48,301 nt of DNA from Bacteroidia bacterium (GTDB taxonomy: Bacteria; Bacteroidota; Bacteroidia; Bacteroidales; VadinHA17): assembly GCA_026391475.1 (NCBI GenBank), contig JAPLED010000008.1, positions 1-48,301 of the forward strand. Reading direction: 5' to 3'. Made by a program: the position numbers and the translations under genes. This document shows, piece by piece, positions 7,827-17,903 of the stretch (position 1 is the first letter of the stretch; every line of letters starts with the position of its first letter). Under the pieces are notes generated by a model. The model had not been told where the DNA came from and ran no database searches. It saw only the letters and a list, made by a program, of their open reading frames with translations.

Positions 7827-7926
7827 AATAATATGGGCTACTTCGCGCACTGAATTGTTACATATTTTGTTGATCAGTCCGAGGATATACGGGTTTTGAG
7901 GTTCGAAGACTGTCCCTTATGCATTC

Positions 7927-7993
7927 TTTATAAAATCTTTATAGGGCTCACCCTATTCTTTATAACATCTTTATGAAGTCCTGCGCAATTTTG
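7927..7993 (+). promoter_or_regulatory. First KdpE-type operator/promoter
   Basis: There are two direct-repeat boxes: TTTATA at 7927 and 7938, then TTTATA at 7959 with TTTATG at 7970. In each pair the half-sites are offset by 11 bp, the spacing used by OmpR/PhoB-family regulators, and the two boxes are 32 bp apart. A -7-like CAATTTTG sits at 7986-7993, 27 bp after the start of the second box. TTTATA-N5-TTTACA is the form known for E. coli KdpE, and a kdpE gene lies in this island. The promoter faces the 36-aa ORF. Confidence 0.75.
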
Positions 7994-8023
7994 TATTGTC
8001 ACAAAACCCGAAATTTTATAAAA

Positions 8024-8134
8024 ATGATATTCTGGATTCTATATCTGATATTTTTATTTATTTCTGTTTGTCTGTTGTACGGATGGGCAATGAATTTCTT
8101 TTACAAGATGTTCTTCAATAAGAAAGGAAGGTAA
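8024..8134 (+). CDS. 36-aa single-span membrane peptide in kdp leader
   Basis: An ATG-to-TAA frame encodes a 36-residue peptide: a hydrophobic span (MIFWILYLIFLFISVCLL), then YGWAMNFFYKMF and a basic tail NKKGR. The positive-inside rule puts the tail in the cytoplasm. It has its own promoter with KdpE-type repeats and is followed by a second such promoter before kdpF. I recognise no family and see no clear similarity to KdpF. By analogy with small subunits or regulators such as KdpF, it may stabilise the transporter or modulate the sensor, but this is speculation. It may also be a leader peptide only. Confidence 0.55.
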   Translation: MIFWILYLIFLFISVCLLYGWAMNFFYKMFFNKKGR

Positions 8135-8155
8135 TTCCAATTTAATGATTCTTCC

Positions 8156-8221
8156 TTTATAAAATCTTTATAACCAAAGAATAATACTTATAAAACCCTT
8201 ATAAAAGCTGTTGTATTTTTG
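8156..8221 (+). promoter_or_regulatory. Second KdpE-type operator/promoter, before kdpF
   Basis: TTTATA occurs at 8156 and 8167, and CTTATA at 8187 and 8198. Both pairs are offset by 11 bp, with 31 bp between boxes. A perfect -7 element TATTTTTG follows at 8214-8221. The distance from the second box to the -7 element is 27 bp, exactly as in the upstream copy, so the two control regions share one architecture. This should be the main promoter of kdpF-E. Confidence 0.8.
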
Positions 8222-8243
8222 TATCGTAGTAAAATAATCAGAT

Positions 8244-8381
8244 ATGAATGCAACAATTTTATTGGTATTATCCAAACCCGTTGAGACGAATCTTTCCTCA
8301 GGGTATATAATCGGAGCAATAATCGCCCTGTTTATATTCGGATACCTTTTTTACTCACTTGTTAAACCCGAAAAATTCTAA
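8244..8381 (+). CDS. kdpF: Potassium-transporting ATPase small subunit KdpF
   Basis: A 45-residue single-span peptide. Its C-terminal half, GAIIALFIFGYLFYSLVKPEKF, has the KdpF form: a hydrophobic helix ending in Y-x-L-x-x-PEKF. KdpF stabilises the KdpABC complex in the inner membrane. The N-terminus (MNATILLVLSKPVETNLSSG) is about 15 residues longer than the shortest KdpF proteins. The start codon follows the second KdpE-type promoter by 22 bp. The gene ends 3 bp before the porin gene, so it is the first cistron of the structural operon. Confidence 0.8.
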   Translation: MNATILLVLSKPVETNLSSGYIIGAIIALFIFGYLFYSLVKPEKF

Positions 8382-8384
8382 ATT

Positions 8385-9149
8385 GTGAAAAACAAATATT
8401 TTTTGCTGGTGGTGTTCATCACTTTAGCCTGCTTTGCAAGTCTTCCTGTAAATGCTCAAAAAAGTGAACCAGTTTCTCCGTTTAAGGTAACAGCAGATCT
8501 GGTTAGTCATTATGTCTGGAGAGGTTCAATGGCAACCGGAAGTCCTACCCCAAACTTCCAGCCAACTTTAGCTTTTACAAAAGGGAATTTTGAAATTGGG
8601 GTTTGGGGATCTACAGATTTTGTTGGGGACTATAAAGAAGTTGACCCATATGTTTCTTTTATTGCCGGACAGTTTAAATTTGCATTTACAGATTACAACT
8701 GGAATTTTAGTCAGGCTAATTACTTCAATTATAAGAATAGTGAAACCGGTCATAGGTTTGAAGGTACTATTGGTTTTATCGGTAATGAGACTGTACCAAT
8801 AAGTGTTACATGGAATACACTGTTTTACGGGTTAGATAAGAAATCTGACGATTCGACCAGACAGGCTTATTCTACATATATTGAATTGGGTTATTCAAAT
8901 GGTGCTGCCAGTTTCTTTTTTGGATTTACCCCATGGTCAGGTTATTATAATAATTACGGAGTAACAACTTTTGATCCCGGAGCCGGTAATAAGACATTTT
9001 CAATAGTCAATATTGGTGCCAGCGTTACAAAAAAATTGAAAATTAATGAAACTTTTTCTCTGCCACTAAAAGCTACTCTGGTTATTAATCCTTCGGCTAC
9101 ATATTCCAGGAATGATTATATTCATCTGGTATTTGGAATAACATTCTAA
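8385..9149 (+). CDS. TorF-like outer-membrane porin in kdp operon
   Basis: A 254-residue outer-membrane protein with a signal peptide cut after about VNA/Q at residue 24. The mature start (KVTADLVSHYVWRG) and the alternating strands match the TorF-type putative porin family (TIGR02001), and the protein ends in the aromatic strand LVFGITF. It starts at a GTG 3 bp after kdpF and is followed 41 bp later by kdpA. Its placement inside the kdp operon suggests it supplies potassium across the outer membrane during limitation; this is inferred from context. In the family the substrate is unknown. Confidence 0.8.
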   Translation: MKNKYFLLVVFITLACFASLPVNAQKSEPVSPFKVTADLVSHYVWRGSMATGSPTPNFQPTLAFTKGNFEIGVWGSTDFVGDYKEVDPYVSFIAGQFKFAFTDYNWNFSQANYFNYKNSETGHRFEGTIGFIGNETVPISVTWNTLFYGLDKKSDDSTRQAYSTYIELGYSNGAASFFFGFTPWSGYYNNYGVTTFDPGAGNKTFSIVNIGASVTKKLKINETFSLPLKATLVINPSATYSRNDYIHLVFGITF

Positions 9150-9190: not shown

Positions 9191-10876
9191 ATGAACGAAG
9201 CAATTCAATTGATTCTTTTCATGGTGGCGCTGGCTGCCCTTGCGCCTTTGTTAGGCAAGTACATGGCAAAGGTATTCATGGGTGAAAAGCATATTATGAA
9301 ACCGGTTTTTGGCTGGTTTGAAAAATCAGTTTACCGGGTATCCGGTATCAAAAGCGAGGAGGAAATGAACTGGAAGACCTATTTATATGGTGTCCTCCTT
9401 TTCAACCTGTTTGGTTTTGTGCTTTTGTTTCTTTTACAGATATTGCAAGCCTATTTGCCACTGAACACTGAAAAATTGCCTAATGTTTCGTGGCATCTCG
9501 CATTTAATACGGCTATGAGTTTCACCACTAACACCAACTGGCAGTCCTATAGCGGCGAAAATACCCTGAGTTACATGGTCCAAATGCTGGGTCTGACAGT
9601 TCAGAATTTTGTTAGCGCAGCGACCGGTATTTCTGTTGTACTTGCTCTTATACGTGGATTGACCAGAAAAACAACCGATTCATTGGGTAATTTTTGGGCC
9701 GATATGACCCGCAGTGTGGTTTATGTTTTGTTGCCACTAGCTATTATTCTCACTATGGCTTTGGTGGGACAGGGAGCTGTGCAGACATTTTCGCATTATG
9801 TCAAAGCGACCACTTTACAGGGCACTGAGCAGGTTATTCCACTTGGCCCGGCGGCGTCGCAAATTGCAATTAAACAACTTGGCACAAACGGAGGAGGATT
9901 TTTTAATAGCAATAGCTCTCATCCGTTCGAAAATCCATCGCCTTTTTCCAACTTTTTGGAAATGTTTGCCCTCATAATCATTTCAGCCTCATTAGTATTT
10001 ACTTATGGTCATTACGCGAAGTCTAAACGCCATGCACGGGCAATATTTATCACCATGTATATCCTGTTTGCGGTAGGTATTGCCATATCTCTATGGTCAG
10101 AGTACAGTCATAACGATGTGTTGAATGTTTCGGGAGGTATGGAAGGAAAGGAAACCCGCTTTGGAGTGATGAACAGCGTCCTATGGTCTGTTACTACAAC
10201 CGTTACATCGAATGGTTCTGTGAATGCCATGCATGACAGCTTATCTCCATTATCCGGGATGGTTTCAATGTTCAACATGATGCTTGGTGAAATCATTTTT
10301 GGAGGGGTAGGATCCGGATTATATGGGATAATCATCTTTATCATTCTTACCGTTTTTATTGCCGGTCTCATGGTAGGCCGGACACCTGAATACCTGGGTA
10401 AGAAAGTGGAAGCCTTTGAGATGAAAATGGCAATACTTGCAGTTTTAGCTCCCAGTATAGTCATCAAATTATTTTCAGCAATAGCCTGCTCGGTACCTGC
10501 AGGGCTTTCGAGTCTCAATAATGCAGGGCCTCATGGACTTTCTGAAATTCTGTATGCCTTCAGCTCTGCAGCAGGAAATAATGGCAGCGCTTTTGCAGGG
10601 CTCAATGCCAACACCGTCTTTTATAACCTGATGATCGGATTTGGTATGCTCATAGGCCGTTTTGGAGTTATCGTTCCTGTAATGGCCATAGCAGGAAGTA
10701 TGGCAAAGAAAAAGATCACCCCGGTTTCATTAGGTACATTTAAAACAGACAACTGGTTATTCGTACTATTGTTGATCGGAGTAATTCTGATTGTTGGCGG
10801 TTTGACCTTTTTCCCTCCACTTGCATTAGGTCCTATTGTTGAACATTTATTAATGAATCTGGGTGTTACATTTTAA
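9191..10876 (+). CDS. kdpA: Potassium-transporting ATPase subunit A (KdpA)
   Basis: The channel-like potassium-binding subunit of the high-affinity KdpFABC pump in the inner membrane. At 561 residues it is full length, with about ten membrane helices. The four selectivity-filter loops are all visible: TNTNWQSYSGE (113-123), TNGGGFFNSNSSHPFENP (232-249), TSNGSVNAMHDS (339-350) and AGNNGSAFAGL (461-471). Each keeps the glycine expected at the filter. Potassium enters here and is passed to KdpB. The gene is followed 22 bp later by kdpB. Nothing is missing or truncated. Confidence 0.98.
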   Translation: MNEAIQLILFMVALAALAPLLGKYMAKVFMGEKHIMKPVFGWFEKSVYRVSGIKSEEEMNWKTYLYGVLLFNLFGFVLLFLLQILQAYLPLNTEKLPNVSWHLAFNTAMSFTTNTNWQSYSGENTLSYMVQMLGLTVQNFVSAATGISVVLALIRGLTRKTTDSLGNFWADMTRSVVYVLLPLAIILTMALVGQGAVQTFSHYVKATTLQGTEQVIPLGPAASQIAIKQLGTNGGGFFNSNSSHPFENPSPFSNFLEMFALIIISASLVFTYGHYAKSKRHARAIFITMYILFAVGIAISLWSEYSHNDVLNVSGGMEGKETRFGVMNSVLWSVTTTVTSNGSVNAMHDSLSPLSGMVSMFNMMLGEIIFGGVGSGLYGIIIFIILTVFIAGLMVGRTPEYLGKKVEAFEMKMAILAVLAPSIVIKLFSAIACSVPAGLSSLNNAGPHGLSEILYAFSSAAGNNGSAFAGLNANTVFYNLMIGFGMLIGRFGVIVPVMAIAGSMAKKKITPVSLGTFKTDNWLFVLLLIGVILIVGGLTFFPPLALGPIVEHLLMNLGVTF

Positions 10877-10898: not shown

Positions 10899-12986
10899 AT
10901 GGAAAAACAAAATATGAGTCGCCTGTTTACCAGAGAAATTGCAGTACAGGCAATAAAAGATTCCTTTATTAAACTGAACCCGTCAGCACTGGTCAGGAAT
11001 CCTGTAATCTTTATAGTAGGAATTGGAGCATTGATGACTACGGTAGTGGTAATTCTGGATATTTATGCAGGAAATTTTTCATCCTTCAATTTTCAGATAA
11101 CATTATGGCTTTGGTTTACCGTCTTGTTTGCCAACTTTGCCGAAGCGGTTGCTGAAGGCCGGGGAAAAGCGCAGGCAGATAGTTTGCGCAAAAGCCGTAC
11201 CAAAACAAAAGCCCGCAGGCTGGTTCATAATATAGAGGAAATTGCATTGGCAACAGATCTGAAAAAGGGAGATATTGTCATTTGTGAAGCTGGAGATATT
11301 ATACCGGCTGATGGTGATGTGATCGAAGGAATAGCCAGTGTTGATGAATCGGCTATTACTGGTGAATCAGCTCCTGTCATCCGCGAAAGTGGTGGCGACC
11401 GTTGTGCAGTGACAGGGGGAACAAAAGTAATCAGCGACAGGATTATCATTAAGGTGACGTCTGATCCGGGTAATACATTTTTGGACCGAATTATTGCATT
11501 GGTTGAAGGTGCAAAACGTCAGAAAACACCGAACGAAATTGCTTTGACCATCCTTTTATCCGGGCTTACAATAATATTCCTGTTAGTGGTCGTCTCCTTG
11601 CCGGCTTATTTTGGTTATAGTTTAAAAGCTTCAGGTGTACCTGCAAATCATAATCTGACTTTACCTGTTCTGATATCATTGCTTGTCTGTCTTATTCCAA
11701 CAACTATCGGAGGTTTGTTAAGTGCAATAGGTATAAGCGGAATGGACAGGTTGTTACGTAAGAATGTTATTGCAACCAGTGGTAAAGCTATTGAAGCAGC
11801 AGGTGATACAGATGTTCTGCTGCTGGATAAAACCGGAACCATTACATTGGGTAACCGGATGGCTACTGAATTTATTCCTGCAGAAGGCTTTACGAAAGAA
11901 CAATTGGCGGATGCAGCACAATTAGCATCCCTGGCTGATGAAACGCCAGAAGGACGCTCGATTGTCATATTGGCCAAAGAGCAATTTAATATCCGGGGAA
12001 GAGAAATTAACCCTACTGGTACTGTACTTATTCCATTTACTTCACAAACCAGGATGAGTGGTATCGATTTAAGGCCTAATGGTCAATTACGCAGTATTCG
12101 GAAAGGTGCTGCTGACGCGATAAAGACATTTATTCAAAACAACAATGGATTCTTTCCTGAAAAAGTGGAAGAGGTAATAAACGATCTTTCACGACAGGGT
12201 TCCACGCCATTGGTGGTTGCAGAAAATAATCAGGTACTGGGTGTTGTCCACCTCAAAGATATTGTGAAAGGAGGTATTAAGCAACGTTTTGCCGAGTTGC
12301 GGAAAATGGGTATTAAAACGGTAATGATTACCGGAGATAATCCTTTAACTGCAGCCGCTATTGCTGCTGAAGCAGGAGTTGACGATTTTATGGCCGAGGC
12401 AATGCCCGAAGATAAATTACAGCGCATACGTGATGAACAAGCCAACGGTCATCTGGTAGGGATGATTGGTGATGGCACCAATGACGCTCCGGCCCTAGCC
12501 CAGGCCGATGTGGGTTTGGCTATGAACACCGGCACTCAAGCTGCACGTGAGGCCGGGAACATGGTTGATCTTGATAGTAACCCCACAAAACTCATTGAGG
12601 TGGTGGAAACCGGGAAGCAGTTGCTGATGACCCGTGGCGCTTTAACTACATTCAGCATTGCCAATGATGTGGCTAAATATTTCGCTATTATTCCTGCTAT
12701 TGCCACATTGTTGTATATTACATCTTCCGGAGTATCTCCTTTAAGTGTTCTGAATATTATGAAACTATCTACTCCAGAAAGCGCTATCTTAAGTGCCGTA
12801 ATATTCAATGCACTGATAATTATCGCCCTTATCCCTCTTGCCCTCAAAGGTGTGAAATACCGTCCTATTTCCGCCACACGCGTACTGGCATTGAACATGG
12901 TGATCTACGGTATTGGCGGTATAATCATTCCATTTATAGGAATCAAGCTGATCGATATGCTGCTTGTGTCAACGCACATGATCTAG
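10899..12986 (+). CDS. kdpB: Potassium-transporting ATPase subunit B (KdpB)
   Basis: The P-type ATPase subunit that hydrolyses ATP to drive potassium uptake. At 695 residues it is full length. The actuator-domain motif TGES is at 154-157. Its Ser is the one phosphorylated to inhibit the pump in E. coli. The phosphorylation loop DKTGTIT has the catalytic Asp at 310, preceded by the membrane-helix CLIPTTIGG motif (about 264-272). The hinge motif MITGDN is at about 476-481, and GDGTNDAP at 524-531. All catalytic residues are intact. It sits between kdpA and kdpC in the standard order. Confidence 0.98.
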
Positions 12987-13024: not shown

Positions 13025-13621
13025 ATGAAAACACAAACGATTATAGCATTAAAATTTTTACTGATTATGACTGTTCTGACCGGAGTTATTTATCCGTTTT
13101 TCATGACAGGAGTGGCACAGCTTACCTTTCGGGCCAAAGCGAATGGGAGTCTGATAATAAAAGATGGTAAAATTATAGGCTCTGAGTTAATTGGCCAAAA
13201 ATTTGACAGCACTATCTATTTCTGGTCAAGGCCCTCAGCCATTGATTATAACCCCATACCATCTGGAGCATCCAACCTCGGTCCAACAAGTGATAAGTTA
13301 AAAAAGCAGGTTGTGGAACGACGCATTTTATTTGCAATAATGAATACCATAACGGATACAACAGCTATACCCAAAGAAATGATTTTTGCATCAGCAAGCG
13401 GCCTCGATCCTCATATTTCTCAAAAAGCAGCTCTATTGCAGGTGGACCGGGTTGCTAAAGCCAGAAATTTCAATACTATCCAAAAGCATAATTTGGTTCA
13501 AAGTGTAAAAAACCTTACTGAAAAACCTCAGTTTTTAGTTCTTGGCGAAGAAAGAGTTAATGTATTGGCTTTAAACCTTGAACTTAATAAACTTGACCAG
13601 AACATTACAAATAACAAATAA
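13025..13621 (+). CDS. kdpC: Potassium-transporting ATPase subunit C (KdpC)
   Basis: The single-span periplasmic subunit needed for assembly and high potassium affinity of KdpFABC. The 198-residue protein has one N-terminal helix (about residues 8-30). IGSELIGQKF and YFWSRPSA follow. The conserved block SASGLDPHISQKAALLQVDRVAKARN (shown here as SASGLDPHIS then QVDRVAKARN) lies around residues 122-148. The C-terminal VNVLALNLELN matches the family ending. It follows kdpB by 38 bp and precedes the HAMP receptor by 12 bp. Confidence 0.97.
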   Translation: MKTQTIIALKFLLIMTVLTGVIYPFFMTGVAQLTFRAKANGSLIIKDGKIIGSELIGQKFDSTIYFWSRPSAIDYNPIPSGASNLGPTSDKLKKQVVERRILFAIMNTITDTTAIPKEMIFASASGLDPHISQKAALLQVDRVAKARNFNTIQKHNLVQSVKNLTEKPQFLVLGEERVNVLALNLELNKLDQNITNNK

Positions 13622-13633
13622 AATCGATATTTT

Positions 13634-14527
13634 ATGAAAACTTCAATCCGCAGCACAAGATTTACTATGGGTATGGTGCTTTTCCTGGTAATCATTTTGT
13701 TGTTATCAATCTCCTCTGCTTTTTATCTTAACAGGCTGTCGGGGAAAACAAATGCAATCCTCAAAGAAAACCATTATTCCGTTGTTTATGCCCGAGACAT
13801 GTCAGAAAACCTGACAAATATTAATCAGGGAATTATTAATTGCTTTTTAACAAATAAAAATCCTGATACTTTAATTATTAACAAGGAGTTTATGTTATTT
13901 AACAAATCGCTTAAATTAGAAAAAAATAATATAACAGAGCCCGGTGAAGATAAACTTGTATCCGGTATTGAGACTGATTATATTGAATACCGCGATTCAG
14001 TTTTAAAGTTCATAAAATCGCCAAATCCAGTTATTAAGGTTCTTAACCTGCAAAAGAAATTTGACAGTCTTTACCAACAATTGATGCTTTTGTCTCAAAT
14101 GAACGAGAAAGCCATTGAAGTAAAGACCGATGACGCTAAAGTTTCGGCAAAAAAGGCTACGTTACAAATGACATTTATTGGAACTTTATGTTTTTTGATT
14201 GCTTATGGTTTTACCTTTATCTTTTCATCATATTTCAATGAACGGTTTTATAAATTGTATAATGGGATAAAAGAAATAGTTTCCGGTAATTATAGCCAAA
14301 AGCTTTATCTTGATGGGAATGATGAACTCTGCGAAATTTCATTAATTTTTAACGAAATGGCAGAGAAATTAAACAAGAACAAGCAAAAAATGTCAGTAAC
14401 TTTACAGGAAGATTTGGTAAAGGAGTTAAGTTCTAAAGACATTCAGGAGTTGAAAAAGACTCTGTTACGGATAAAAAGTATAGAAGAACAAGCCGTAGAG
14501 TTAATTTCCAGGTTAGAAAAAAAGTAG
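13634..14527 (+). CDS. HAMP-domain membrane receptor without kinase
   Basis: A 297-residue two-span protein. Helix 1 is at about 12-32. An extracytoplasmic helical domain spans about 33-170 and resembles four-helix-bundle sensors (NHYSVVYARDMSENL). Helix 2 is at about 172-195. A HAMP linker follows at about 196-250 (FYKLYNGIKEIVSGNY, DGNDELCEISLIFNEMAEKL). The tail is a 45-residue charged coiled coil. There is no H-box, ATPase, PAS or receiver domain. It lies 12 bp after kdpC and 6 bp before kdpD, so it is co-expressed with the sensor kinase. It may pass a periplasmic signal to KdpD or modulate it. That role is inferred; the domain reading is solid. Confidence 0.75.
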   Translation: MKTSIRSTRFTMGMVLFLVIILLLSISSAFYLNRLSGKTNAILKENHYSVVYARDMSENLTNINQGIINCFLTNKNPDTLIINKEFMLFNKSLKLEKNNITEPGEDKLVSGIETDYIEYRDSVLKFIKSPNPVIKVLNLQKKFDSLYQQLMLLSQMNEKAIEVKTDDAKVSAKKATLQMTFIGTLCFLIAYGFTFIFSSYFNERFYKLYNGIKEIVSGNYSQKLYLDGNDELCEISLIFNEMAEKLNKNKQKMSVTLQEDLVKELSSKDIQELKKTLLRIKSIEEQAVELISRLEKK

Positions 14528-14533
14528 TATTAT

Positions 14534-17206
14534 ATGGACATCAGTGACAATCGCCCTAATCCCGATGAACTTTTGGCTTCATTAAAGTTTGAGGAAGAAA
14601 AAAGCAAACGGGGCAAGCTGAAAATATTTTTTGGCATGTGTGCCGGTGTAGGTAAAACTTATACTATGCTTCAAACAGCACAAGCTGAGAAGTTGAAAGG
14701 GAAAGATATTATCATTGGCTATGTTGAAACGCACAATCGAAAGGAGACAGCTGAGTTGGTAGAGGGCTTTGAATTGATTCCCCGCAAAACCTACCAGTAC
14801 AAATCTACTACTGTTCAGGAAATGGATTTGGATGCAATAATAGCCCGAAAGCCCCGGATTGTTCTGGTTGACGAACTTGCTCATACTAATGCCCCCGGTA
14901 GCAGGCATACAAAAAGGTTTCAGGATGTTTTGGAAATTCTTGATAACGGCATTAACGTTTACACTACCGTTAACGTGCAACACCTCGAAAGCCGTTCCGA
15001 TACCGTAGCGCAGATTACTGGCATTATTGTCCGGGAAACCCTCCCCGATGAAATTTTTGAAAGCGCCGATGAGGTTGAATTGGTAGACCTTACTCCTGAT
15101 GAATTGCTGCAAAGACTTTCGGATGGCAAAGTATATACTCCCGAACGGTCGAAAGAAGCCATCGAGAGTTTTTTCCGCAAAGGAAACATAACAGCTTTGC
15201 GGGAAATGGCATTGCGAATAGTTGCCGACCGGGTGGACAAGCAACTACACGAATATATGCAACTTAAACGAATAAAAGGCCCATGGAAATCGGGATTACA
15301 TCTATTGGTTGCAGTTAGTCATACCCAGCAATCAGCTAAATTACTCAGGTGGGCTAAAAACCTTTCTTACACAATGGGCGCTGATCTACAAGCTGTCTAT
15401 GTAGAAACTTCCTACAAGCTTAGCCCTAAAGAAAGTGAACAACTAAATAAGAATATCAATCTTTCCAGACAGTTAGGTATTAAGTTCCGCTTTATTACCC
15501 ATAGTGATATGGTTAAAGCAATTGTGGATTTTGCCCAAAAGGAAAATATTACGCATATAATCATCGGTAAACCCCGTGTACGTAATCTGTTGACCCTATT
15601 GCGGCTTGGCAACTTTGTGAACCGGCTTATTCGTTTTAGCGGTAATATCGATGTATACATACTAGGATCCGATATTCAGTCGAAAGATAAGTTTAAGGAA
15701 AAAGTCTCTTTGCCATCATTCACTTCAAATATCCGGCAATACTTTACAGCTTCGTTAATAGTAATACTTGCAGCGATTACCTGTTTTTCCATTAAAGAAT
15801 TTATCGGTTATCAGGTTGTTTCATTTGCTTTATTGTTTGTTGTTTCAACGCTTGCATTTTTCTTTGGTACAGGGCCCATTTTGCTGTCCGCAACATTGAG
15901 CGCCCTAATTTGGGATTTCTTTTTCATACCACCACCCTATACCCTGCATGTCGATAAGCCGGAAGATATGCTTATGCTAATAATGTTTTTCATTATTGCG
16001 TTGTTAAGCGGGGTGCTGACATCAAGGATAAAGATACAGGAGATGAAGATCAGGATACGTGAGGAACGTACAAATGCCCTATACCAGCTTACCAGAGAAC
16101 TTTCCACCGCTACAGGTATCGAAGAGGTTATTAATATTGCTAAAAACGATATTAAGAAATATTTTAACCTTAAGAGTCGAATCTTACTTAAAAATGACAC
16201 AAACCAGCTTGATTACACAAGTCAGAATGATGCAAACATCATCCTGTCAGGAAACGACATGAGTGTTGCAGTATGGACATTCCAACACTCTACCAAGGCA
16301 GGAAAGCATACCGATACTTTACCATCCGGTAATTTTACATTTTACCCTTTAAAAGGAAATCAGATGAACTTAGGGGTTATTGCCATTCAACAGGCAAATG
16401 TCTTCACTCAGGGTGAAGAGCAGTTCTGGGAGGCATTTATTTCCCAAATATCTGGAAAGTTCGAACGGGAATATCTGCGCAATATGGCTAAGCAGGCCTT
16501 TTTGCTAAACGAATCCGACAAACTGTATAAAACGCTATTTAACTCAATATCACACGAATTGAGGATTCCTGTTGCAACAATTATGGGCGCTTCCGACTCT
16601 CTGCTTACAACTCAGCATCCTCAGGAAATACGAAACGAACTCTCTCATGAAATATTTAAAGCCTCCAAAAGATTAAACCGCTTGATCGAGAATCTCCTGA
16701 ATATGTCCCGACTCGAAAGTGGCCGGATAACTCCACGACTTGATTGGTGCGATATTCACGATCTGATAAATAAAGTCACTGAAAACCTCAAGGATGAACT
16801 CAAACCGTTCAGACTTCATGTCGTTATTCCAGATGATATGCCTTTTGTAAAGATCGACTTCGGATTAATGGAGCAAGTCCTTTATAATCTTATTTATAAT
16901 GCCACCCAGTATGCTGCTACTTCAATTAATTTAAGAGTTAAAGCATTCTATGACAATGGATTTATGACTTTGCAGGTTATGGATAGAGGACCCGGTTTTC
17001 CCAGGAAGGAAATAACACTTATATTTAATAAGTTTTACAGGGTAGAAGGATCAAAAGCAGGTGGTACAGGACTAGGACTTTCAATTGCAAAAGGTTTTGT
17101 TGAAGCACAAAAAGGGACAATAATAGTGGAAAACAGACAGAATGGTGGTGCAATATTCACAATCAGGATACCTACTGAGATACCTCAGGTAGATTTTAAG
17201 GGATAA
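14534..17206 (+). CDS. kdpD: Osmosensitive potassium sensor kinase KdpD
   Basis: The inner-membrane histidine kinase controlling kdp expression. At 890 residues it is full length. The N-terminal KdpD domain has Walker A GMCAGVGKT (34-42; more often GAAPGVGKT) and VDELAHTNAPGSRH (112-125). A Usp domain is at about 255-378, four membrane helices at about 403-498, and a GAF-like segment at about 515-640. The kinase core has SISHELRIP with His674, an N-box with Asn789, DRGPGF (817-822) and GTGLGLSIAKG (844-854). It senses low potassium or ionic strength and phosphorylates KdpE, whose gene begins 13 bp downstream. Confidence 0.97.
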   Translation: MDISDNRPNPDELLASLKFEEEKSKRGKLKIFFGMCAGVGKTYTMLQTAQAEKLKGKDIIIGYVETHNRKETAELVEGFELIPRKTYQYKSTTVQEMDLDAIIARKPRIVLVDELAHTNAPGSRHTKRFQDVLEILDNGINVYTTVNVQHLESRSDTVAQITGIIVRETLPDEIFESADEVELVDLTPDELLQRLSDGKVYTPERSKEAIESFFRKGNITALREMALRIVADRVDKQLHEYMQLKRIKGPWKSGLHLLVAVSHTQQSAKLLRWAKNLSYTMGADLQAVYVETSYKLSPKESEQLNKNINLSRQLGIKFRFITHSDMVKAIVDFAQKENITHIIIGKPRVRNLLTLLRLGNFVNRLIRFSGNIDVYILGSDIQSKDKFKEKVSLPSFTSNIRQYFTASLIVILAAITCFSIKEFIGYQVVSFALLFVVSTLAFFFGTGPILLSATLSALIWDFFFIPPPYTLHVDKPEDMLMLIMFFIIALLSGVLTSRIKIQEMKIRIREERTNALYQLTRELSTATGIEEVINIAKNDIKKYFNLKSRILLKNDTNQLDYTSQNDANIILSGNDMSVAVWTFQHSTKAGKHTDTLPSGNFTFYPLKGNQMNLGVIAIQQANVFTQGEEQFWEAFISQISGKFEREYLRNMAKQAFLLNESDKLYKTLFNSISHELRIPVATIMGASDSLLTTQHPQEIRNELSHEIFKASKRLNRLIENLLNMSRLESGRITPRLDWCDIHDLINKVTENLKDELKPFRLHVVIPDDMPFVKIDFGLMEQVLYNLIYNATQYAATSINLRVKAFYDNGFMTLQVMDRGPGFPRKEITLIFNKFYRVEGSKAGGTGLGLSIAKGFVEAQKGTIIVENRQNGGAIFTIRIPTEIPQVDFKG

Positions 17207-17219
17207 CAAAAATCAAATT

Positions 17220-17903
17220 ATGAATTTATCCGAAACAATATTGATTATTGACGATGAAGTGCAAATTCGCCGTTTACTTGAAATTACTCTTTCATCCAGT
17301 GGTTATAAGATTTCTGAAGCTGCTACGGGAAAGGATGGACTTATTGCTGCTGCCACACATCACCCGGCACTGATAATTCTTGATTTAGGGTTGCCTGATT
17401 CTGATGGCATCGAAATACTTAAAAAATTAAGGGAATGGTATCAGAAACCAATTATTATTCTTTCAGCAAGGAATTCGGAAGAAGACATAGTCCACGCGTT
17501 GGATAATGGTGCTAACGATTACCTGACTAAACCCTTCAGAACAGGAGAGCTTCTTGCCCGTATAAGAGTTGCAATACGACAAAACCTTGGAGCGGATGAT
17601 AATCCAATTCTAACTTTTGGCTCTCTTTCTATTGACCTGGCAAATCATACCGCTCGTAAAAATGGCGAAATATTGAAACTTACCTCAACCGAGTTTTCTT
17701 TATTGGCACTTCTGGCAAAAAATTCAGGGCGGGTAATGACCCACCAGAATATCCTTAAAGAAATATGGGGATTTGGTTATGTTGGACAAACACAATACCT
17801 GAGAGTATTCGTAGCTCAGCTTCGTAAAAAAATTGAAGACGATCCTGCAAAACCACAGTTGCTTATTACTGAATCCGGAATCGGATACCGGTTTCATGAA
17901 TAA
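17220..17903 (+). CDS. kdpE: Response regulator KdpE
   Basis: A 227-residue OmpR/PhoB-family transcription factor. The receiver domain has the acidic pair at residues 11-12, the phosphoacceptor Asp55 in IILDLGLPD, and the switch Lys in NDYLTKPF near residue 103. The winged-helix DNA-binding domain covers about 130-227 (LTSTEFSLLALLAKNSGRVMT, recognition helix near QTQYLRVFVAQLRKKI). OmpR-family proteins bind direct repeats with 11-bp offset, and exactly such repeats stand before the 36-aa ORF and kdpF. It is the last gene of the island and ends 42 bp before a convergent gene. Confidence 0.97.
   Translation: MNLSETILIIDDEVQIRRLLEITLSSSGYKISEAATGKDGLIAAATHHPALIILDLGLPDSDGIEILKKLREWYQKPIIILSARNSEEDIVHALDNGANDYLTKPFRTGELLARIRVAIRQNLGADDNPILTFGSLSIDLANHTARKNGEILKLTSTEFSLLALLAKNSGRVMTHQNILKEIWGFGYVGQTQYLRVFVAQLRKKIEDDPAKPQLLITESGIGYRFHE

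What the first reader, a model, noticed from the sequence alone, without database searches (positions are those of the whole stretch)
7927..8221. Two matched KdpE-type promoters ahead of the kdp island
Upstream of both the 36-aa ORF and kdpF there are two direct-repeat boxes, each of TTTATA-N5-TTTATA form with 11-bp offset. The boxes are 31-32 bp apart, and the second is 27 bp from the -7 element in both copies. The exact repetition of spacing, with otherwise different sequence between, is hard to explain by chance. OmpR-family regulators bind such repeats, E. coli KdpE is known to use a TTTATA-N5-TTTACA site, and this island encodes KdpE. That these are KdpE operators is inferred.
Basis: partly seen in the sequence, partly recalled or inferred. 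Interest (0 to 1): 0.7.

Follow-up and report, generated by a model that had tools for sequence, protein, structure and literature searches.

The report
Tandem KdpE switch before potassium pump
Two copies of a paired DNA switch sit in front of this bacterium's emergency potassium-pump genes; comparison with many related genomes indicates that they are docking sites for the potassium-starvation regulator KdpE, and a similar two-box layout shows up in distant bacteria, E. coli included.

Summary
Promoter A (7927-7993, before a 36-aa ORF) and promoter B (8156-8221, before kdpF) each hold a distal and a proximal TTTATA-N5-TTTATA-type box, offset 32 and 31 bp, the proximal box ending 10 bp before a YAnnTTTG -7 element. 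A sequence model built from other genomes only finds these two places as the only strong hits in the 2.8-Mb genome (54.2 and 50.9 bits; next 20.1). The site follows the OmpR-type regulator KdpE, not the pump: it co-occurs with KdpE in 60 relatives and in 395 class genomes (Fisher p 3e-10, 1e-12), while 21 Bacteroidia kdp loci without such a KdpE beside them lack it. In genomes without kdpA it stands mostly before kdpDE, Kup, TrkH or porins. The KdpE reading is strongly supported; binding is untested. Beyond the finding: a half-site recurs at +43/44 from the distal box in kdp promoters of other phyla, and E. coli K-12 has TTTGCG-AAATC-TTTGCA at +32, 10 bp before TACCCT. Likely mechanism: KdpE binds both boxes on one DNA face, the proximal box standing in for the -33/-35 element, as in PhoB promoters (recalled). 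New variant of a known kind.

The parts
7927..7943 (+). Promoter A, distal KdpE box (TTTATA-AAATC-TTTATA)
   Evidence: Sequence; model R1 hit 7924-7998, 54.2 bits, E 3.4e-14
7959..7975 (+). Promoter A, proximal KdpE box (TTTATA-ACATC-TTTATG), offset 32
7986..7993 (+). Promoter A, -7 element CAATTTTG, 10 bp after the proximal box
   Evidence: YAnnTTTG pattern in other genomes; -7 consensus TAnnTTTG in PMC7366714 (passage)
8024..8134 (+). 36-aa single-TM ORF, possible product of promoter A
   Evidence: hydrophobic, starts 25 bp after the model hit; no family hit at E 0.001 (one chance-level Pfam match at E 1.1); no significant homologue in the fetched loci
8156..8172 (+). Promoter B, distal KdpE box (TTTATA-AAATC-TTTATA)
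   Evidence: Sequence; R1 hit 8155-8226, 50.9 bits, E 3.5e-13
8187..8203 (+). Promoter B, proximal KdpE box (CTTATA-AAACC-CTTATA), offset 31
8214..8221 (+). Promoter B, -7 element TATTTTTG, 10 bp after the proximal box
8244..8381 (+). kdpF, 45 aa
   Evidence: PF09604 E 1.3e-7; TIGR02115 E 2.8e-8; coordinates
8385..9149 (+). putative outer-membrane porin between kdpF and kdpA (weak TorF-family match)
   Evidence: TIGR02001, 26 bits, below its cut-off of 47.15; no Pfam hit
9191..10876 (+). kdpA
   Evidence: PF03814 E 4.4e-243
10899..12986 (+). kdpB
   Evidence: E1-E2 ATPase and hydrolase domains
13025..13621 (+). kdpC
   Evidence: PF02669 E 6.8e-66
13634..14527 (+). 297-aa protein with a HAMP domain and no kinase domain found, between kdpC and kdpD
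   Evidence: PF00672 E 1.7e-5
14534..17206 (+). kdpD sensor kinase
   Evidence: PF02702, Usp, DUF4118, HisKA, HATPase_c
17220..17903 (+). kdpE, OmpR-type response regulator, presumed binder of the boxes
   Evidence: Response_reg and Trans_reg_C; best NCBIfam match KdpE, 255 bits, below its 325 cut-off; best PDB match E. coli KdpE 4kny, E 2e-65

Best explanation
Each promoter is a tandem KdpE operator. Under potassium limitation KdpD phosphorylates KdpE, and KdpE binds two boxes, each an 11-bp direct repeat. The boxes lie about three helical turns apart (31-32 bp), hence on one face of the DNA. The proximal box ends 10 bp before the -7 element and takes the place of a -33/-35 element, so KdpE there probably touches RNA polymerase, while the distal box, in the place of the one described E. 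coli site, adds occupancy. Promoter B drives kdpF, the porin and kdpABC, and perhaps on through the HAMP protein and kdpDE (autoregulation); promoter A drives the 36-aa membrane peptide and may read on into kdpF. Shown here: the geometry, its conservation, its co-occurrence with KdpE, its place before potassium genes. Inferred: binding, dependence on phosphorylation, activation rather than repression, operon extent, contact with polymerase.
For: (1) Fixed geometry: a scan free to choose offset 31-33 and gap 11-15 chose gap 13 to TTTTGT and offset 31 or 32 in all 21 loci (20 and the window's own) that scored 7 or less, of 30 scanned. (2) Model R1 (22 sites, no window copy) puts the two window sites alone at the top of the genome. 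(3) Co-occurrence with KdpE, counted by hand from the listings: 60 relatives, 22 both, 3 KdpE only, 3 site only, 32 neither; 395 class genomes, 11 of 12 site-bearing ones have KdpE against 31 of 395 overall (Fisher). (4) Of 20 KdpE loci (19 genomes) that the class scan had missed, 19 hold R1 matches; 28 of 28 matches lie on kdpE's strand, 15 between -8 and 160 bp from the end of kdpE, 11 upstream of a KdpD-like gene. (5) Control: 0 of 21 Bacteroidia kdp loci without an OmpR-type KdpE beside them has a site upstream of kdp, and none of these genomes is among the KdpE-positive ones. (6) All 48 KdpE-like regulators picked by overall similarity from the fetched loci keep R193, R200 and T215; PMC3264566 says R193 is conserved only among KdpE orthologues (passage). 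(7) Outside Bacteroidota, a copy of the distal half-site lies at +44 in 42 of 68 loci (8 of 23 clades), +43 in 4 (3 clades), +32 in 5 (4 clades); every other offset from 20 to 75 has 0-3 loci. (8) In four Enterobacteriaceae 16 of 17 columns of the +32 repeat are invariant against 7 of 15 in the spacer before it and 4 of 10 in the gap after it. (9) 0 of 24 sites (22 training, 2 window) has TTTG at 19-21 bp from the -7 element.
Against: No binding or start-site data exist for this organism. In E. coli the footprint cited in PMC3264566 covers only about -72 to -50, the distal box, so the proximal box may be weak or unbound there. Single boxes are hardly enriched. Promoter A has CA instead of TA in its -7 element. 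The training sites were found by a scan that asked for boxes and TTTTGT, so their invariance there is partly by selection. G055 and G375 have sites without a detected KdpE; the three KdpE-bearing relatives without a site (G019, G024, G035) are explained only by contigs cut upstream of kdp. Of 72 loci outside Bacteroidota, 4 had no distal box at the threshold and 18 of the other 68 show no copy at +32, +43 or +44 (26 of the 42 at +44 are Pseudomonas). Ideonella, Cupriavidus and Deinococcus gave no clear box in the scan.
Confidence: 0.85

Rival explanations
1. Only the distal box is a KdpE operator; the proximal box is an AT-rich -33/-35 promoter element that resembles it.
For: The E. coli footprint cited in PMC3264566 covers only the distal site (passage); in Pseudomonas and Rhizobiales the first half of the proximal box is diverged (TCTCG).
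Against: In Bacteroidales the proximal box is a full direct repeat in 11-bp register with a conserved C before its second half, and TTTG at -33 is absent in 24 of 24 sites. Proximal half-sites tend to change with the distal ones by clade (TTGAGA in Kapaibacteria, TTGATG in one Anaerolineae locus, CTAATG in Methylobacterium).
Confidence: 0.25
2. The boxes bind another OmpR/PhoB-family regulator or a nucleoid protein, and stand before kdp for that reason.
For: OmpR-family sites are direct repeats in general (PMC3264566 passage); the first look shows that these genomes hold many further regulators of related sequence.
Against: Co-occurrence with KdpE across 60 and 395 genomes and adjacency to kdpE in genomes that lack kdpA; absence from kdp loci without an OmpR-type KdpE beside them.
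Confidence: 0.06
3. Promoter A is a second promoter of the kdp operon, or a leader; the 36-aa ORF is not translated or only a by-product.
For: The 36-aa ORF has no significant homologue in the loci fetched and no family; I did not look for a terminator between it and kdpF; the stretch 7996-8250 folds somewhat better than shuffles (z -2.7).
Against: In relatives extra sites stand before genes of their own (L166 has four sites before four genes), and five sites (L139, L153, L155, L157, L165) are followed within about 25 bp by another small single-TM ORF.
Confidence: 0.35
4. The paired boxes are a chance product of AT-rich intergenic DNA.
For: Single boxes are only mildly enriched.
Against: Simulations, genome-wide rank and conservation.
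Confidence: 0.01

Closest known systems
E. coli KdpE operator of kdpFABC (PMC3264566, passages)
   Same: TTTATA-N5-TTTA(C/T)A 11-bp direct repeat upstream of kdpF; cognate OmpR-type KdpE with R193, R200 and T215.
   Different: One site of 23 bp (-72 to -50) is described in the passages seen; here two boxes stand in tandem at 31-32 bp, the second next to the -7 element. The E. coli record holds a diverged repeat at the same second place.
PhoB pho boxes replacing -35 (recalled, read in no call)
   Same: Direct repeats of an OmpR-family regulator, the promoter-proximal one about 10 bp before the -10 element.
   Different: Other regulator and half-site (TGTCA(T/C) for PhoB against TTTA(T/C)A for KdpE, PMC3264566 passage); here the boxes are 14-15 bp apart.
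Mycobacterium smegmatis KdpE site (PMC5401905, passages)
   Same: KdpE-dependent activation of kdpFABC.
   Different: A 22-bp A-rich motif that its authors found unlike the others. They state (2017) that KdpE sites had been identified in four species only: E. coli, C. acetobutylicum, S. aureus and M. smegmatis.
NtrC-type regulators beside kdp in other Bacteroidia (seen here)
   Same: Accompany kdpFABC and a split KdpD in the same class.
   Different: Regulator of about 445 aa, alike to KdpE only in the receiver, many with the sigma-54 GAFTGA motif; no tandem boxes found.

Membership tests
KdpE operator (OmpR/PhoB family) | Two TTTA(T/C)A half-sites as an 11-bp direct repeat | tested here: met
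   the proximal boxes carry 1 (A) and 2 (B) mismatches to TTTATA-N5-TTTATA
KdpE operator (OmpR/PhoB family) | A cognate KdpE with the residues needed for binding | tested here: met
   R195, R202, T217 of the window KdpE align with E. coli R193, R200, T215
KdpE operator (OmpR/PhoB family) | Upstream of kdpFABC or other potassium genes, tracking the presence of KdpE | tested here: met
KdpE operator (OmpR/PhoB family) | Binds KdpE; active under potassium limitation | not testable with these tools
   Needs gel shift, footprint, reporter
Bacteroidota primary-sigma promoter | -7 element TAnnTTTG | tested here: met
   TATTTTTG in B; CAATTTTG in A, one mismatch; C is also the commonest base there (16 of 27 sites); consensus in PMC7366714 (passage)
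Bacteroidota primary-sigma promoter | TTTG near -33 | tested here: not met
   0 of 24 sites has TTTG at 19-21 bp from the -7 element, 1 has a TTG within 22-26 bp; [quoted passage not shown] the 19-21 bp spacing is recalled
PhoB-like promoter with the activator box replacing -35 | Box ends about 10 bp before the -10 element | tested here: met
   10 bp in both window promoters, E. coli, Enterobacter, Duffyella and Mycetohabitans and two Klebsiella; the PhoB yardstick itself is recalled
PhoB-like promoter with the activator box replacing -35 | Contact of the regulator with the sigma factor | not testable with these tools
   Needs structure or suppressor genetics

The most novel reading that the evidence does not exclude
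The tandem KdpE operator with fixed geometry (box, 32-33 bp, box, 10-11 bp, -10/-7) is the general form of KdpE-dependent promoters across several phyla, and the textbook E. coli kdp promoter holds an overlooked second box (TTTGCG-AAATC-TTTGCA). In Bacteroidia the same operator defines a potassium regulon that reaches beyond the Kdp pump to Kup, TrkH, a KimA-like permease, outer-membrane porins, kdpDE itself and small single-TM peptides.
Probability: 0.6. Interest if true: 0.68.

Novelty: new variant of a known kind. Interest (0 to 1): 0.56.

Why it matters
A second, promoter-adjacent box at constant spacing would make KdpE a PhoB-like activator, and it gives a simple mutational test in E. coli K-12. 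The operator also works as a genome-readable mark for potassium-starvation genes in Bacteroidia, for which my searches showed no KdpE site: it points to porins as part of potassium scavenging, to KdpE control of Kup and TrkH in species without a Kdp pump, and to unnamed small membrane peptides.

Tried and rejected
Single-box search: mildly enriched in the window and no commoner in the genome than a reversed control (57 against 49 at 2 mismatches), so single boxes carry little weight. The third own-genome hit (C55:12026-12064, 20.1 bits) lies inside a 1034-aa ORF and was set aside as chance. Rows dropped before building R1: 5 of 27 sites, namely the two window copies, L040 (same site as L021), and the weaker sites L008_1210 and L010_1209. 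The 36-aa ORF as a member of one of the two recurring peptide groups: not shown, no significant match. G041 C46:67 scores as the C30 hit, both at contig ends, and was not counted as a second site. L158 (site 458 bp before a PAS kinase) and L164 (before a 77-aa ORF by Kup and TrkA) stay unexplained. Klebsiella: the first anchor chosen was another upstream box; the second gave the tandem pair. RNA fold of 7996-8250: z -2.7, read as probably incidental. Whether the tandem form is in print: paper searches (listings; no paper) showed none on it; the library is open access only, so this is weak evidence. PMC12316311 on sigma-54 regulons holds no 'kdp'.

Full report
What is there. Upstream of a 36-aa ORF (8024-8134) and of kdpF (8244-8381) stand two promoters of one plan: distal box (7927-7943; 8156-8172), 15 or 14 bp, proximal box (7959-7975; 8187-8203), 10 bp, -7 element (7986-7993 CAATTTTG; 8214-8221 TATTTTTG). 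Each box is a TTTATA-N5-TTTATA-type 11-bp direct repeat; the proximal ones have 1 and 2 mismatches. Downstream lie kdpF, a putative porin, kdpA, kdpB, kdpC, a HAMP protein, kdpD and kdpE.

Chance. Single boxes are only mildly enriched. The full plan, scored by mismatches, gives 1 and 2 for the window against a best of 8 in 40 first-order Markov simulations of 48 kb, one strand. I built a sequence-only model, R1, from 22 sites of other genomes, leaving out the window's two copies, one duplicate and two weaker sites of 27. In the 2.8-Mb genome it finds 7924-7998 (54.2 bits, E 3.4e-14) and 8155-8226 (50.9 bits, 3.5e-13); the next match has 20.1 bits and lies inside an ORF. The genome also holds one Kup and TrkH matches at two places, on contigs where R1 lists no hit, so in this genome the strong operator is confined to the kdp genes.

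Relatives. kdpA was found in 22 of 60 genomes, own included. R1 gives a hit over 40 bits in 18 of these 22; 14 of the 18 had supplied training sites, G000, G006, G032 and G041 had not. The four without are G019 and G035 (contig cut upstream), G056 (kdp with another regulator) and G057 (a kdpA fragment; it has a 32-bit hit before kdpDE instead). Of the 36 kdp loci first examined, 6 were skipped because my kdpA search missed them, 30 were scanned, 21 (the window's own among them) scored 7 or less and all 21 chose gap 13 and offset 31 or 32; 9 had no such site (L007, L013, L025, L027, L036, L037, L038, L041, L048; L007, L013 and L027 are cut by contig ends). In the 27 sites, which still held the two window sites and the later dropped rows, the A and the TTT of YAnnTTTG are invariant and the G is 26 of 27; the scan asked for TTTTGT with at most 2 mismatches, so this is partly selection, but the A was not asked for.

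The site follows KdpE. KdpE (E at most 1e-55) is in 25 of 60 genomes. With R1 at E at most 1e-4, counted by hand: 22 genomes have both, 3 only KdpE (G019, G024, G035, contigs cut upstream of kdp), 3 only the site (G010, contig ends within kdpD; G027, site near a contig end; G055), 32 neither; Fisher p 2.9e-10. In 395 class genomes 12 have a site at E at most 1e-4, 31 have KdpE, 11 have both; p 1.2e-12. These p values ignore kinship among genomes. The class scans score few candidates per genome, so I fetched 20 KdpE loci from 19 genomes without a listed site: 19 of 20 contain R1 matches (not L254), 28 of 28 on kdpE's strand; 15 lie between -8 and 160 bp from the end of kdpE, 11 upstream of a KdpD-like gene, 2 elsewhere. 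Matches as weak as 7.7 bits are in that count. A further locus, L261, has one at 19.8 bits.

The control. 63 of 395 class genomes have kdpA over the cut-off. In the upstream 1.5 kb of 29 kdpA loci no tandem pair scored better than 6 mismatches. In 21 kdp neighbourhoods fetched whole (L221-L240, L151; 19 of them among those 29) no full-length KdpE-like regulator was labelled; 16 have one alike only in part (89-156 aligned residues), 15 an ORF with the GAFTGA sigma-54 motif, 20 one or the other, L223 neither; L233 and L238 hold KdpD-like fragments, so a KdpE just outside L233 is possible. None has an R1 hit over 13 bits, and the one of 13 bits lies inside kdpA. None of these 21 genomes is KdpE-positive. 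So the boxes go with the OmpR-type KdpE rather than with the pump.

What the operator stands before. In kdp genomes: kdpF, an APC permease (PF13520) that I call KimA-like from recall, BBP2 or other porins, Kup, TrkH and kdpDE; in kdpA-less relatives TrkH beside kdpDE (G004, G012, G033, G040), with G027 and G055 less clear; in the class sample kdpDE, Kup and BBP2-like porins. Some sites stand within about 25 bp before small single-TM ORFs; two groups of such peptides recur, one ending FHIHLL and one with GHxFKLDKYY, without a Pfam family. The window's 36-aa ORF resembles them in size, topology and position but matches none significantly.

Other phyla. Anchored on the distal box alone, 68 of 72 kdp loci outside Bacteroidota (E. 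coli included; 23 clades that I assigned by hand from the titles) were usable. A hexamer within one mismatch of the locus's own distal half-sites occurs at +44 in 42 loci (8 clades; 26 of them Pseudomonas), at +43 in 4 (3 clades), at +32 in 5 (4 clades), and at any other offset from 20 to 75 in at most 3; 18 of 68 have none of the three. Half-sites tend to vary together by clade: TTGAGA in Kapaibacteria, TTGATG in Anaerolineae L037, CTAATG in Methylobacterium. In E. coli K-12 the distal box is TTTATA-CTTTT-TTTACA and at +32 stands TTTGCG-AAATC-TTTGCA, then 10 bp, then TACCCT. Among E. coli, one Enterobacter and two Klebsiella records, 16 of 17 columns of that repeat are invariant against 7 of 15 in the spacer and 4 of 10 in the following gap. 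Duffyella has TTTACA-ACAAA-TATATA there and Mycetohabitans TTGCCG-TGCGA-TTTATG, each 10 bp before a TA-initial hexamer. Ideonella, Cupriavidus and Deinococcus gave no clear box in that scan.

Mechanism. PMC3264566 (passages) gives the E. coli site at -72 to -50, two half-sites bound independently, and R193 as peculiar to KdpE; the window KdpE keeps R193, R200 and T215. I did not check those residues in other regulators of these genomes. The distal box here lies in the corresponding place; the proximal box lies where a -33/-35 element would be, and 0 of 24 sites has TTTG there. The simplest mechanism is PhoB-like: KdpE on both boxes, one DNA face, the proximal one touching polymerase. That step is inferred and the PhoB comparison is recalled. 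PMC5401905 (passages, 2017) lists KdpE sites in four species, none a Bacteroidota; PMC7366714 (passages) gives the -7 and -33 consensus.

Verdict. The new parts are the tandem geometry as a probably general feature and the wider potassium regulon in Bacteroidia.

Noticed in passing
window 8385-9149; L138:6742-7818; L143:9271-10347; L166:6177-6944; L222:11543-12628: Putative outer-membrane porins of different kinds (weak TorF match, BBP2 by Pfam in L138 and by similarity elsewhere, unassigned in L166) sit in or beside kdp operons repeatedly, some with their own tandem operator.
   Followed up: partly
window 13634-14527: A 297-aa HAMP protein without a kinase domain hit lies between kdpC and kdpD and is found there in nine other fetched kdp loci (57-81 percent identity); a possible extra sensor part.
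   Followed up: no
L221-L240, L151: Other Bacteroidia kdp operons carry a split KdpD and mostly a regulator of about 445 aa with the sigma-54 motif instead of OmpR-type KdpE.
   Followed up: partly
L209:4170-6003; L211:5179-6931; L213; L216; L218: A short KdpD-like kinase (DUF4118 plus kinase domains in L209) with KdpE stands beside Kup, and in several beside BBP2-like porins, in kdpA-less Bacteroidia.
   Followed up: partly
L139, L155, L165, L029, L142; L147, L153, L156, L157: Two groups of unnamed single-TM peptides (GHxFKLDKYY and FHIHLL types) recur right after tandem operators or kdpF.
   Followed up: partly
L156 (G023): kdpF and a 35-aa peptide follow an operator of their own near kdpE, apart from kdpABC, which has another operator.
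   Followed up: no
L278:508-612: Mycetohabitans has an annotated 34-aa hydrophobic peptide upstream of kdpF, a parallel to the window's 36-aa ORF in another phylum.
   Followed up: no
L273 and L275, about 190-200 bp before the end of the stretch scanned (near kdpF): Both Klebsiella records hold a further perfect TTTATA-N5-TTTACA box about 90 bp upstream of the tandem pair.
   Followed up: no
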